The notes beneath the pieces were generated by a model, which saw nothing but the letters and a program-made list of their open reading frames with translations, made no database searches and was not told the DNA's origin. The position numbers were made by a program, and so were the translations under genes. DNA of 64,000 nucleotides, from contig JAGXKT010000001.1 in the NCBI GenBank assembly GCA_018335035.1, forward strand, positions 124,001-188,000, written 5' to 3'. This stretch comes from Phycisphaerae bacterium. GTDB lineage: Bacteria; Planctomycetota; Phycisphaerae; SM23-33. Shown here one piece after another: positions 15,724 to 21,838 of this stretch (the first letter of the stretch is position 1; every line of letters starts with the position of its first letter).

Positions 15724-15957
15724 ATGGTTGAGGCGCTTTGGGCAGCTACGGCCGCTTCCGCAGCGCCGCTGGGTGGCGCGACCAGCCGTCCGGCGGTGTT
15801 GGGTGTGGACGCCGTCGTTGGGGGGCTCGTCGTCGCCGCGGCGCTGATCGTGATGGGCGCGCTGGTTCTGTGGAGCCGTCGCGCCATTGAGCGAGCGGCC
15901 GCCAGCGGCTTTCCCTCCGCGCGCACCGTGGTAAGGACGCACCGCCGTGAGCGATGA
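15724..15957 (+). CDS. Small single-pass membrane protein
   Basis: A 77-aa ORF with one strong membrane segment (GGLVVAAALIVMGALVLW, residues 33-50) followed by a basic tail (RTVVRTHRRER). It ends 11 bases inside the permease gene that follows, so translation of the two may be coupled. No ribosome-binding site is seen, but a promoter 10 bases upstream could give a leaderless message. No family is recognised; it may be an accessory subunit of the permease. Moderate-to-low confidence that it is expressed. Confidence 0.4.
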   Translation: MVEALWAATAASAAPLGGATSRPAVLGVDAVVGGLVVAAALIVMGALVLWSRRAIERAAASGFPSARTVVRTHRRER

Positions 15958-18241
15958 TCGCAACGTGCATGCCGAGCTGTCGCGCGATCTGAAGCTCTCT
16001 CACGTCACGCTGATGGGGCTGGGCATGATGATCGGGGCGGGTGTGTTCATCGGCATCGGCATCGCTACCGGCAAGGCCGGCCCCGGTGGCGTGATTCTGA
16101 CCTTCGCGCTGAACGGGCTGATTGCCCTGTTCACGGCCATGAGCTTTGCCGAACTGGCCAGCGCCATCCCGCGCGCTGGCGGCGTGTACAATTTCGCGCG
16201 GATCGCCTTCGGGCGGGGCGTCAGCTTTCTCGGCGGGTGGATGGAATGGTTCGCCTCGAGCGTGGCCGGCAGTTTGTACGCCGTGGTCTTCGCCGCTTAC
16301 ACCACCCAGTACGTTGCCAACGGCATCCTCGAACTGGGCCTGGTAGACGCGGAGCTGACGCGCGTCATCAAGGTCGTCGCCGTGGCGGTGGGGTTGGGGT
16401 TTCTGTACATCAACTACCGCGGCGCGTCGGAGACGGGCAAGATCGGCGCGCTGTTCACGCTGGCGCAGATGGGCTTCGTCCTGTCGATCGCTGTCGTCGG
16501 CATCGTCCGTGCCGGCGTCGAGCCGTCCCGCCTGAGCAACTTCCAGCCCTTCCTGCCGAACGGCTGGTCCGTGCTGCTCGTGACGATGGGCTTTATCTAC
16601 GTGGCGTTCGAGGGCTTCGAGGTCATCGCCCAGGCCGGCGACGAGACCATCGAGCCCAAGAAGAACATGCCCAAGGCGATGCTGTACTCCGTGCTCATCG
16701 TCACGGTGACGTACGTGCTGGTCTCGTTCGCGACGATCGTGGCCGTGCGCCCGGACGACGTCGGCGGCGCGGTCTGGCGGTGGATCGGCACGCGGGGCCC
16801 GGCGAGCGACGGCGAGACGGGCTTCGGCGACGCGGTCAACCGCATGATTCCCTACGGCGGTCTGCTGGTGACGCTGGCGGTGATCTTTTCGTCGACGTCG
16901 GCGCTGAACGCGACGATCTACTCGGCCACCCGGGCCGGGTATGCCCTCGGGCGCGACCGCATGCTGCCCGGCGCGTTGGCGCGAATCAGCCCGAAGCGGC
17001 GCACGCCGTACGTGGCCCTGACGTGCACCGGCGTGATCGTCCTGACCGTCGCGGCGCTGCTGCCGACCAAGCACGTCGCCTCGTGCGCGAGCATCATGTT
17101 CCTGTTCCTGTTCTTCCTGGTGAACCTCTGCGCGATCAAGGTGCGCCTCAACATGGGCGACGAGCTGCAGTACGGCTTCGTGATGCCGCTGTTTCCCGTG
17201 TTTCCGATCGCGGCGATCGTCGGACAGGCGGTGCTGGCGGCCAACATCGGGCACATCAGCCGCCTGGCGATCGTCGTCGCGCCGGCGTGGGTTCTGGCCG
17301 GGGTCGGCGTGTACCTGCTGTATGCCCGAAAGCGCGCCGTCGCCACGGAAGACGAAATTCAGGTGCTCGCCGAGACCGAGGGCCCGCCCGGCGGCGAGTA
17401 CCGCGTAATGGTCGCCGTGGCCAACCCCGCCAACGCGCTGTCGATGGTTCGCCAGACGTACCGCCTGTGCGAGGCGACGGGCGCGCGCGTCGAGCTGCTG
17501 CACATGGTGCCCGTCCCGCCGCAGGTGCCGCTGTCCGACGCGGACAAGTACATGACCGAGGGACGCGAGGGTATTCTCGAAAGCATGCTCTACCTCGCGC
17601 CGCTGTTTGCCATCTCCACGCACCTGCGCTACTGCCGCAACCCCGCCCGCGGCATCGTCAGCGCCGTCCGCGAGCGGCGGACGAACCTGCTGATCATGGG
17701 CTGGCACGGCCGGGCGATGCAGCGGACGTTCCGCATCGGCGCGACGGTCGACCCGGTCATCGAGCGGGCGCCGTGCAACGTCGTCGTGATGAAGGACTGC
17801 GGCGGTGATCGCGTGTTCCGTCGCGTGCTGGTGCCCGTTGCCGGTGGGCCCAATGCCGCCTACGCCCTGGAGGTTGCCGGCATCCTCGCTGATGCTGAAG
17901 CCGGCGAAGTGACGGCGTTCTACGTGGATCGCGGCGGGCGGCTACGCCGTCGGGGCGGGCAATTCGACGTGGACGGCTTCCTTGACGCCCAGCGGGAGCG
18001 CATTCGCCTGCCGGCCGAACGCGTTCGCGCCAAAACCGCCGCCGGAAGCTCCGTGGTCCGCGCGATCCTCGCCGAAGCCCGCGACTACGACCTGGTCGTC
18101 CTCGGCTGCACGGAACAACCGCTGCTGCGCCAGATCGCTCACGACCCCATCCCCGAACGCGTCGCCCAGCGCTGCGATCGCCCGCTGGTGATGGCTAAGG
18201 CCTCCGGCGGGCTGCGATCCTGGGTCCGCCGCTGGGTCTAG
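15947..18241 (+). CDS. APC-family amino-acid permease fused to two UspA domains
   Basis: A 764-aa inner-membrane protein. Residues 15-450 carry about twelve membrane segments of the amino acid-polyamine-organocation superfamily (MGLGMMIGAGVFIGIGIATG is the typical TM1 glycine motif; YNFARIAFGRGVSFLGGW and ATRAGYALGRDRMLPG are also typical). From about residue 480 two consecutive universal stress protein domains follow (YRVMVAVANPANALSM and VFRRVLVPVAGGPNA), the second ending VVLGCTEQPLL. UspA domains bind nucleotides in many proteins and may gate transport by energy state. GTG is the start, with TAAGGA 9 bases upstream. The transported amino acid is unknown. Confidence 0.88.
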   Translation: MSDDRNVHAELSRDLKLSHVTLMGLGMMIGAGVFIGIGIATGKAGPGGVILTFALNGLIALFTAMSFAELASAIPRAGGVYNFARIAFGRGVSFLGGWMEWFASSVAGSLYAVVFAAYTTQYVANGILELGLVDAELTRVIKVVAVAVGLGFLYINYRGASETGKIGALFTLAQMGFVLSIAVVGIVRAGVEPSRLSNFQPFLPNGWSVLLVTMGFIYVAFEGFEVIAQAGDETIEPKKNMPKAMLYSVLIVTVTYVLVSFATIVAVRPDDVGGAVWRWIGTRGPASDGETGFGDAVNRMIPYGGLLVTLAVIFSSTSALNATIYSATRAGYALGRDRMLPGALARISPKRRTPYVALTCTGVIVLTVAALLPTKHVASCASIMFLFLFFLVNLCAIKVRLNMGDELQYGFVMPLFPVFPIAAIVGQAVLAANIGHISRLAIVVAPAWVLAGVGVYLLYARKRAVATEDEIQVLAETEGPPGGEYRVMVAVANPANALSMVRQTYRLCEATGARVELLHMVPVPPQVPLSDADKYMTEGREGILESMLYLAPLFAISTHLRYCRNPARGIVSAVRERRTNLLIMGWHGRAMQRTFRIGATVDPVIERAPCNVVVMKDCGGDRVFRRVLVPVAGGPNAAYALEVAGILADAEAGEVTAFYVDRGGRLRRRGGQFDVDGFLDAQRERIRLPAERVRAKTAAGSSVVRAILAEARDYDLVVLGCTEQPLLRQIAHDPIPERVAQRCDRPLVMAKASGGLRSWVRRWV

Positions 18242-20177: not shown

Positions 20178-20651
20178 ATGCCACCGAAACCCCTGGTTGA
20201 TCTATCCTCGCTGGATATGACGCAGTTCGAGGCGGACCGTGACGGGATCTACGCGGTCAATCCTCATCGCTACGAGTTCCAGCAACTGGACGGGATCTTC
20301 TTCTCTGACCACGACAGCGGGCTGATCGTCGGTTATCGCGACGTGCGGGACGACGAATTCTGGGTTCGCGGGCACATTCCCGGGCGGCCCATCTTCCCCG
20401 GCGTGCTCATGATCGAGGGGGCCGCTCAGCTCGTCAGCTACTACGTGATGAGCGAACAGGCGGACAAGGGCTTTCTCGGCTTCGGCGGCGTCGACGGCGT
20501 CAAGTTCCGCGGAACGGTCCGGCCGGGGCAGCGGCTCATCGTGGCCGGAAAGCTCCTGGAGAACCGCGCGCGCCGATGCGTCGGCGCCACCCAGGCCTTC
20601 GTGGAGGGGCACATGGTCTACGAAGGCACGATTACGGGCATGTGGCTTTGA
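20178..20651 (+). CDS. FabZ-like 3-hydroxyacyl-ACP dehydratase
   Basis: A hot-dog fold dehydratase (157 aa) that removes water from 3-hydroxyacyl-acyl carrier protein in fatty-acid elongation. The key histidine lies in the VRGHIPGRPIFPGVLMIEGA region (residues 65-84), and this motif also carries the conserved glutamate. FGGVDGVKFRGTVRPGQ is the typical third strand. ATG at 20178 has AGGA 6 bases upstream, so the longer in-frame start at 20082 is rejected. It follows rex by 64 bases. Many planctomycetes have several FabZ/FabA-like genes, so the exact role (FabZ itself or a related lipid-A or outer-membrane lipid step) is uncertain. Confidence 0.85.
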   Translation: MPPKPLVDLSSLDMTQFEADRDGIYAVNPHRYEFQQLDGIFFSDHDSGLIVGYRDVRDDEFWVRGHIPGRPIFPGVLMIEGAAQLVSYYVMSEQADKGFLGFGGVDGVKFRGTVRPGQRLIVAGKLLENRARRCVGATQAFVEGHMVYEGTITGMWL

Positions 20652-20680
20652 CCGACCGTCGCGCCGCGCGGGAGGTGACG

Positions 20681-21838
20681 ATGCTGCCGTCGACAAGCCA
20701 GTTCGACGCCCGCATCGCGGTCCAACCCCCGCTCAGCGCCGAGCGTCTGTCCGACGTGCCGGCCGCACGCGGCGTGCTGGCACTTCTGGACGAACATGAG
20801 CGCCCGGTCACGCTCATCACGGCCGCCGATATGCGGGCGCGCCTGCGCTCGCGTTTGGCACGCCGCGACGATGGCCACCCCCGAAAGGCCGCCGACCTGC
20901 GCACGGTGACCCGCGCCGTCTGCTGGACACGCACGGACGGGCATTTCGAGACGGACCTGGCGTATCTTGAGTTGGCACGGCAGCTCTGGCCGGACGATTT
21001 CGCTGAGATGCTCGCCTGGAAGCCCGCGTGGTTCGTTCGGCTCGATCTCGACGACGTGGCTCCGGCCTTTGTTGCCACGCGCGGCGGCCTTTGCGGTGAT
21101 GCATGCTGCGTGGGGCCGTTTCCATTGAGACGGGCGGCGCGGCGGTTCGTGGCTGTGCTGGAAGACGCTTTCGATCTATGCCGGGATCGCTCGCTTCTGG
21201 CCAGGGCGCCGCACGCGCGGACGTGTCCGTACGGACAAATGGGGCGGTGCCTTCGCGTATGTGACGGATCGGTGACGATGGACGCCTACCGCCGCCGGCT
21301 GAGCGAGGCGCTGGACTACGCCATCGGCCGGAGAGAGGACATCGCCGCCGAACTGCGCCGCCGCATGCAGGCCGCTTCGGACGCTCTGGACTTTGAGCGA
21401 GCGGCGGCGCTCAAGGCGCGTCTGGACCGCCTGAGCGTGTTGAACGAGGCGGACTTCCACCACGTGCGCCCGGCCGAGCGATTTCAGTTCGTTCTCATCC
21501 AGCCCGGCGGTGGACGGCGCCGCCTGCGGCCGTTCCTGGTCGACGGCGGACGCATCGCGCCGCGGGCCGTGCTGGACTGGCCGCTCAAGCGTACGCAGCT
21601 TCGCGAGTTACTGGCGAAGATGGGGCGATTCGTCAACGCGTCGGCCCGTCCGGACAACGCCGGCCCTTGGCGGGTTGGCCTGGTGGCGAAGTACCTGTTC
21701 TCCGCGCCGCAACGCCGTGGTCTGGCCGTGCATTGGACGGACGCGCTGGATGCGGCCGCGCTGACCGAGCAGATCGTCGCTGCACGCGGCGTGCTGGGGT
21801 TGTCCGATCGTGTCGGTCCGGATGCAGATGAGCGCTAA
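20681..21838 (+). CDS. UvrC-like protein with degenerate GIY-YIG region and no nuclease half
   Basis: A 385-aa protein related to the N-terminal half of UvrC. Residues 28-60 (GVLALLDEHERPVTLITAADMRARL...) align with the GIY-YIG domain opening but lack the GIY and YIG residues. The cysteine region CPYGQMGRCLRVCDGSV matches UvrC's CxxxxxGRC-xx-C segment, and RRRMQAASDALDFERAAALKARLDRL is a UVR motif. The C-terminal RNase H-like nuclease domain is absent. It is therefore not expected to make incisions alone and may be a UvrB-binding partner or decoy. GGAGG lies 5 bases before the ATG at 20681, and the gap to the FabZ-like gene is 29 bases. Confidence 0.8.
   Translation: MLPSTSQFDARIAVQPPLSAERLSDVPAARGVLALLDEHERPVTLITAADMRARLRSRLARRDDGHPRKAADLRTVTRAVCWTRTDGHFETDLAYLELARQLWPDDFAEMLAWKPAWFVRLDLDDVAPAFVATRGGLCGDACCVGPFPLRRAARRFVAVLEDAFDLCRDRSLLARAPHARTCPYGQMGRCLRVCDGSVTMDAYRRRLSEALDYAIGRREDIAAELRRRMQAASDALDFERAAALKARLDRLSVLNEADFHHVRPAERFQFVLIQPGGGRRRLRPFLVDGGRIAPRAVLDWPLKRTQLRELLAKMGRFVNASARPDNAGPWRVGLVAKYLFSAPQRRGLAVHWTDALDAAALTEQIVAARGVLGLSDRVGPDADER

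What the first reader, a model, noticed from the sequence alone, without database searches (positions are those of the whole stretch)
20681..21838. UvrC paralogue with dead GIY-YIG region and no RNase H nuclease half
The protein keeps the UvrC cysteine segment (CPYGQMGRCLRVC) and UVR motif but lacks the GIY and YIG residues and the C-terminal nuclease. It sits after rex and a FabZ-like gene, not with other repair genes. A UvrB-binding protein without cutting ability could act as a competitor or adaptor of excision repair.
Basis: partly seen in the sequence, partly recalled or inferred. Interest (0 to 1): 0.55.

Follow-up and report, generated by a model that had tools for sequence, protein, structure and literature searches.

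The report
Nuclease-dead UvrC relative of Phycisphaerae
This gene encodes a relative of the DNA-repair cutting enzyme UvrC that has lost its cutting sites but keeps its metal-binding-type cysteines and its partner-binding motif; about half of the sampled bacteria of one class keep it, so it probably steers or supports repair without cutting.

Summary
Window 20681-21838 encodes a 385-aa UvrC/Cho-like protein that AlphaFold2 models at pLDDT 94.8. Residues 15-109 have the UvrC GIY-YIG fold, yet its catalytic residues are replaced: T for the YIG Tyr, T for the Lys, R for the third Tyr, Y for the Glu, F for the Asn. There is no RNase H half. Nothing suggests a broken uvrC. The same genome has intact uvrA, uvrB and a canonical short uvrC. 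The protein belongs to one well-supported family in Phycisphaerae, found in 191 of 397 class genomes searched. In 94 informative members the Lys, third Tyr, Glu and Asn are never present and the YIG Tyr once. Three of four UvrC cluster-type cysteines are invariant in 95 of 95, the fourth kept in 89; the UvrB/UvrC-type UVR motif is kept; dN/dS of close pairs is 0.10-0.31. Architecture matches the published "Cho-like" class, but with a dead nuclease. A divergent FabZ-like gene lies directly upstream in 54 of 80 loci. Most likely it docks on UvrB as a non-cutting competitor, adaptor or scaffold in excision repair; binding is inferred, not shown. It is a new variant of a known kind.

The parts
20681..21838 (+). 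Nuclease-dead Cho-like/UvrC paralogue, 385 aa
   Evidence: Translation; NCBIfam/Pfam; 191 of 397 class genomes have a family match at E<=1e-40
20671..20676 (+). GGAGGT, ribosome-binding-like sequence before the ATG
   Evidence: Read directly from the sequence
20723..21007 (+). Degenerate GIY-YIG domain (residues 15-109)
   Evidence: AlphaFold2 model; Z 9.4 to 1yd6_C and 8.0-8.2 to the T. maritima UvrC domain; catalytic columns lost
21179..21262 (+). Four-cysteine segment C167-x14-C182-x7-C190-x3-C194
   Evidence: C167, C182, C190 in 95 of 95 and C194 in 89 of 95 family members; spacing of 14 in 92 of 95
21347..21433 (+). UVR (UvrB/UvrC) motif, residues 223-251
   Evidence: PF02151 above its cut-off; M229 90, F238 83 (Y 12), E239 84, A241 95 of 95; profile hits UvrB chains
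21482..21799 (+). C-terminal domain (residues 268-373), probably the UvrC region between UVR and RNase H
   Evidence: TIGR00194 match runs to model position 288; family profile aligns over 29-379 with full-length UvrCs but only 33-272 with short UvrCs; by itself the domain finds no clear fold and only weak profile support
20178..20651 (+). Divergent FabZ-like dehydratase gene, conserved upstream neighbour, 29 nt before the paralogue
   Evidence: PF07977 86.7 bits, FabZ 87.2 bits under its cut-off of 113; directly upstream on the same strand in 54 of 80 loci

Best explanation
It is a Cho-like paralogue of UvrC whose 3'-incision nuclease died once, at the base of a Phycisphaerae family, and which has been kept ever since for a job that needs no cutting. 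Proposed mechanism: its UVR helices pair with the UVR domain of UvrB, as those of UvrC do, while its four-cysteine domain (the segment that carries a [4Fe-4S] cluster in UvrC) and a basic helix of the dead GIY-YIG domain hold DNA. Docked on the UvrB-DNA pre-incision complex in place of, or beside, the cutting UvrC, it delays, licenses or redirects incision, or holds UvrB for a repair or recombination step that needs no incision. Shown here: homology, fold, loss of the site, conservation of cysteines and UVR, purifying selection, coexistence with UvrABC. Inferred: UvrB binding, cluster and DNA binding, and the effect on incision.
For: Catalytic columns in 94 informative members: K32, Y43, E76 and N88 equivalents in none, Y29 in 1, while the UvrC comparators that cover the columns keep all of them. 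One clade, 100/100 support, apart from UvrC. Fold kept. Cysteines nearly invariant and UVR kept. UVR is nearest to UvrB-type UVRs. The third Tyr is replaced by Arg/Lys in 94 of 94 and R52 is R or K in 93 of 95, so a basic helix is selected. dN/dS 0.10-0.31 in the 14 closest pairs. uvrA, uvrB, uvrC present in the own genome; 35 of 40 relatives with the family have a UvrC over the cut-off. A catalysis-independent role of UvrC has precedent in H. pylori (PMC9426483, section 7 read whole), and the cysteine loop helps UvrC bind DNA (same paper, passage).
Against: No binding data. The most conserved neighbour is a FabZ-like gene, not a repair gene. ClpC of the same genome also has a UVR-like segment, so UvrB is not the only possible partner. 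The family is absent from about half of the class genomes (206 of 397 without a match at E<=1e-40), so excision repair does not depend on it.
Confidence: 0.45

Rival explanations
1. A helper subunit of the short UvrC: the class's UvrC lacks the region between UVR and RNase H, and this protein supplies that region and extra DNA contacts in trans, so that a non-cutting and a cutting subunit work together.
For: Own UvrC (458 aa) matches TIGR00194 only at 5-234 and 367-538. The family profile aligns over 29-379 with full-length UvrCs but only 33-272 with short ones.
Against: Class genomes without the family also have short UvrCs, e.g. G049 473 aa, G054 457 aa, G057 474 aa. The C-terminal domain alone matches full-length UvrC only weakly (E 0.13, probability 0.4%).
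Confidence: 0.15
2. A UVR adaptor outside excision repair, for example for ClpC, in the manner of McsA-type adaptors (recalled).
For: The genome encodes a ClpC-like protein (named by eye) whose middle region matches the UVR end of the UvrB model. The gene does not sit with repair genes.
Against: The family UVR profile finds UvrB chains first and a ClpE chain only at E 0.049. The conserved DNA-repair-type cysteine segment and GIY-YIG fold would be unexplained.
Confidence: 0.12
3. A partner of the FabZ-like gene: a DNA- or redox-sensing protein whose role is tied to acyl-chain or envelope metabolism; the UvrC ancestry is only history.
For: FabZ-like gene directly upstream on the same strand in 54 of 80 loci, median gap 38.5 nt, with the dehydratase motif in 50 of 55; downstream, AsmA-like and ManA-like genes recur (names by eye).
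Against: 25 of 80 loci hold no such FabZ ORF (L104 has no upstream DNA). Close spacing may be an inherited operon only. UVR and cysteines stay UvrC-like.
Confidence: 0.13
4. Still a nuclease, with a rebuilt GIY-YIG or other site.
For: GIY-YIG fold kept; new conserved residues appear in the domain, e.g. E90 75 of 95, D92 60 of 95, W117 84 of 95.
Against: The Glu, Lys, third Tyr and Asn are lost in all 94 informative members and the YIG Tyr in 93; changing the second Tyr alone abolished the T. maritima domain (stated in PMC9426483).
Confidence: 0.06

Closest known systems
Cho-like subfamily of UvrC (GIY-YIG, C4, UvrB-binding; one member, Gloeobacter violaceus, in Dunin-Horkawicz 2006, PMC1564403, passages seen)
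   Same: Same domain order; no EndoV/RNase H, no HhH, no exonuclease domain
   Different: GIY-YIG site destroyed in the whole family; strong matches confined here to the window's class
DnaQ-Cho / Cho-like+Exo of Actinobacteria (NCBIfam PRK07883 models)
   Same: Best NCBIfam match, 109.7 bits over residues 21-365 against model 207-551 of 563
   Different: No exonuclease domain; far under the cut-off of 495; dead GIY-YIG
UvrC
   Same: GIY-YIG fold, four cysteines, UVR, in the same order
   Different: No RNase H and HhH; catalytic residues lost; 62.7 bits against a cut-off of 285.45
E. coli Cho
   Same: A UvrC paralogue without RNase H
   Different: 31 bits against a cut-off of 367; has UVR and a UvrC-like C-terminus instead of the Cho C-terminal domain described in PMC1564403; no nuclease site
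L180, a Cho-like protein of another Planctomycetota class (G345)
   Same: About 400 aa, no RNase H, best NCBIfam match also PRK07883.1-4 (151.4 bits)
   Different: YIG, Arg, third Tyr, Glu and Asn present by eye; branches on the UvrC side of the tree on a long branch

Membership tests
UvrC (TIGR00194) | Score over the curated cut-off | tested here: not met
   62.7 bits against 285.45
UvrC (TIGR00194) | C-terminal RNase H-like nuclease | tested here: not met
   No PF08459 at E<=10 in P0001; none in 33 members at E<=0.1; present in own UvrC
UvrC (TIGR00194) | GIY-YIG catalytic residues | tested here: not met
   fold kept
UvrC/Cho four-cysteine domain | Four conserved cysteines, C-x14-C-x7-C-x3-C here | tested here: met
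   95, 95, 95 and 89 of 95; spacing
UvrC/Cho four-cysteine domain | Binds a [4Fe-4S] cluster | not testable with these tools
   Known for UvrC (passage citing Silva 2020 in PMC9426483); not measured here
UVR motif proteins (PF02151) | Score over the gathering cut-off | tested here: met
   27 bits against 21.5 in P0001; 26 of 33 members match at E<=0.1
Cho-like (PMC1564403) | GIY-YIG, C4, UvrB-binding order without EndoV/HhH and without ExoIII | tested here: met
   the 385-aa protein has only these and a C-terminal domain
Cho-like (PMC1564403) | Functional GIY-YIG nuclease site | tested here: not met
   0 of 94 keep Lys, third Tyr, Glu or Asn; 1 of 94 keeps the YIG Tyr
DnaQ-Cho (PRK07883 models) | N-terminal DEDD exonuclease and score over cut-off | tested here: not met
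   Match starts at model position 207; 109.7 bits against 495
Orthodox Cho (NF007833) | Score over cut-off | tested here: not met
   31 bits against 367
UvrB-binding protein | Physical UVR-UVR contact with UvrB | not testable with these tools
   Sequence only: profile finds UvrB UVR chains

The most novel reading that the evidence does not exclude
Phycisphaerae run excision repair with a non-cutting UvrC-like subunit beside a shortened cutting UvrC: a cluster-carrying pseudonuclease that occupies UvrB on DNA and decides whether and where the real nuclease cuts, possibly linked to the cell's redox or lipid state through its FabZ operon.
Probability: 0.2. Interest if true: 0.75.

Novelty: new variant of a known kind. 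Interest (0 to 1): 0.5.

Why it matters
Non-cutting relatives of repair enzymes can turn into sensors and adaptors, and how bacterial UvrB recruits UvrC is still poorly understood (stated in PMC8837605, passages seen). A natural family that keeps the docking and cysteine parts of UvrC and has dropped both nucleases is a ready-made separation-of-function tool for asking what these parts do without cutting. Searches of the held open-access library with UvrC plus Cho/GIY-YIG/paralog/inactive, with Phycisphaerae, with Planctomycetes and repair, and with nuclease-dead/pseudoenzyme terms listed no description of such a family (listings and abstract starts only, apart from the papers named).

Tried and rejected
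Truncated or frameshifted uvrC: rejected. Annotation artefact or pseudogene: rejected, dN/dS 0.10-0.31 (the 14 closest pairs of 30 sequences). Hidden RNase H remnant at the C-terminus: the domain alone (model pLDDT 92.5) finds only Z<=3.7 in the PDB and Foldseek E>=0.13; RNase H-like and actin-like chains appear among weak rows, so neither shown nor excluded. Plasmid relatives: none by tblastn at E<=1e-5. A PDB search with the single protein gave nothing below E 0.12. No paper holds both Rv2191 and UvrC in the library. Strict complementarity with short UvrC: not supported, since genomes without the family also have short UvrC. The family alignment could not seed a contig scan because it was too diverged, so a ten-row alignment was used; the 80 named loci are therefore the best 80 of 96 found and lean to the window's relatives.

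The residue numbers Y19, Y29, K32, R39, Y43, E76, N88 follow the T. maritima UvrC domain as I recall it; Y19, Y29, Y43 and N88 also appear in PDB titles. Names such as rex, prfA, ClpC, AsmA-like, ManA, XerC/D and H1-like are by eye or recalled, not from a family search. Rows dropped: 25 duplicates between the two sets; L104 lacks the N-terminal half; L104 and L157 left out of A3; 30 of 95 family rows used in the tree. One UvrC comparator (L051) lost its N-terminus through my trimming, not in nature.

Full report
OBSERVATION. The ORF at 20681-21838 on the + strand codes for 385 aa, with GGAGGT at 20671-20676. Pfam finds only the UVR motif, residues 223-251. NCBIfam's best match is the DnaQ-Cho type model PRK07883.1-4 (109.7 bits, residues 21-365 on model 207-551), then uvrC TIGR00194 (62.7 bits), both far under the cut-offs. 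All 33 members of the first family alignment match both models at E<=0.001.

THE SITE IS DEAD. Aligned with the class's own UvrCs, the stretch [29 protein letters not shown] of the genome's UvrC pairs without a gap with GVLALLDEHERPVTLITAADMRARLRSRL of the window protein. Across 95 distinct family members, 94 with this region, the YIG Tyr is kept in 1, the following Lys in 0, the third Tyr in 0 (Arg 87, Lys 7), the Glu in 0 (Tyr 65, Phe 22), the Asn in 0, the GIY Tyr in 42 and the Arg in 27. UvrC comparators keep all of them: 9 of 9 or 10 of 10 with letters there.

THE FOLD IS KEPT. The AlphaFold2 model on 78 sequences has pLDDT 94.8 and pTM 0.92. Residues 15-109 superpose on the UvrC GIY-YIG domains: 1yd6_C Z 9.4, rmsd 2.5 over 84 residues; T. 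maritima entries Z 8.0-8.2. The other GIY-YIG entries T4 EndoII (Z 7.6) and R.Eco29kI (4.2) also appear. Foldseek's best E-value was only 0.024, so the fold assignment rests on Foldseek probability 1.00 to 1yd6, the Z-scores and the sequence homology together.

WHAT IS CONSERVED INSTEAD. C167, C182 and C190 are in 95 of 95 and C194 in 89 of 95; R168 in 94 and G196 in 95. Spacing of the first pair is 14 in 92 of 95. The UVR residues M229 (90), E239 (84), A241 (95), K245 (84, Arg 9) and F238 (83, Tyr 12) are kept. With the family profile, UVR matches UvrB chains in the PDB (best E 5.2e-5), the GIY-YIG part matches UvrC 1yd6 at 4.0e-4, and UVR matches ClpE at 0.049. Close pairs show purifying selection, dN/dS 0.098-0.311 in 14 pairs.

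DISTRIBUTION. 40 of 60 related genomes have a family member over 100 bits (counted). In a sample of 392 genomes of the phylum, 12 have a match of 190 bits or more, all in the window's class; the next, 130 bits (G338), is a 636-aa UvrC-type frame with an intact motif. In the class, 191 of 397 genomes match at E<=1e-40; of those at least 90% complete and at most 5% contaminated, 124 of 283. The 80 best named loci of 96 found are nearly all titled Phycisphaerae, Phycisphaerales or Planctomycetota. A tree of 30 family rows, 34 UvrCs and one Cho-like row puts the family in one clade with 100/100 support; the Cho-like row L180 has a very long branch and its place is unsure. Loss of the site once, at the family's base, is the simplest reading; it is an inference.

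THE GENOME. uvrB (1020.6 bits), uvrA (1332.8 bits) and uvrC (375 bits in one frame) are all present over their cut-offs. That UvrC has GIY-YIG, UVR and RNase H domains but lacks model positions 234-367. Of 60 related genomes 51 have a UvrC over the cut-off, and of the 40 with the family 35 do. The five without are G002, G004, G012, G021 and G055; G021 has UvrC in pieces. Among the listed class UvrCs the same middle gap is seen with and without the family, so the protein is not a fixed complement to short UvrC.

THE C-TERMINAL PART. TIGR00194 matches to position 288, and the whole family profile aligns with full-length UvrCs over 29-379 (E 5.4e-35) but with short UvrCs only over 33-272 (E 4.2e-26). 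The C-terminal domain alone hits the expected stretch of full-length UvrC, but at E 0.13 and 0.4% probability, and no solved fold clearly. So it is probably the UvrC region between UVR and RNase H; this is weakly supported.

NEIGHBOURS. A FabZ-like ORF lies directly upstream on the same strand in 54 of 80 loci (median gap 38.5 nt, 50 of them within -60 to 150), on the other strand in 1, and is not seen in 25, of which L104 has no upstream DNA. In the window the gap is 29 nt. The gene is FabZ-like but under the FabZ cut-off, and the genome has another FabZ over the cut-off. Its dehydratase motif is present in 50 of 55. Other recurrent neighbours are fewer. No repair gene was recognised among the recurrent ones; XerC/D-like recombinases occur in 20 loci (named by eye).

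PRIOR KNOWLEDGE. Dunin-Horkawicz et al. 2006 (PMC1564403; passages) divide UvrC relatives by architecture; Cho-like without exonuclease (one protein, G. violaceus) has this order, with no mention of lost sites in the passages seen. H. pylori UvrC acts in microimport formation with both catalytic sites and the HhH motif mutated (PMC9426483, section 7 read), a precedent for a non-cutting UvrC function; the same paper cites a [4Fe4S] loop of UvrC that takes part in DNA complexes (passage). The alkyltransferase-like proteins are a recalled precedent for a dead repair enzyme that recruits excision repair.

VERDICT. A real, conserved, nuclease-dead Cho-like family. The most likely role is non-cutting docking on UvrB in excision repair (0.45), with helper-of-UvrC, FabZ-linked and ClpC-adaptor rivals. 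The binding partners are untested.

Noticed in passing
L045 (own genome C76) and class UvrCs: UvrCs of this class lack the region between UVR and RNase H (model 234-367) and end near model position 538-555, with or without the paralogue.
   Followed up: partly
L180, G345:C1:1983500-1986800: A Cho-like protein of another Planctomycetota class without RNase H, with GIY-YIG residues intact apart from the Lys (YVGM), beside a normal UvrC (L181).
   Followed up: partly
20178-20651: Divergent FabZ-like gene, under the FabZ cut-off, with a conserved place before the paralogue; the genome has a separate full FabZ frame on C24.
   Followed up: partly
L163, L143, L088 and others: Small histone-H1-like, XerC/D-like, AsmA-like and ManA-like genes recur around the paralogue in 14-20 loci each; names by eye.
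   Followed up: no
L118, L121, L157: Records titled Methylococcaceae or Actinomycetes carry clear members of this family; possibly mislabelled genome bins.
   Followed up: no
15947-18241: ORF that by eye looks like an APC-type amino-acid permease fused to universal-stress-protein domains.
   Followed up: no
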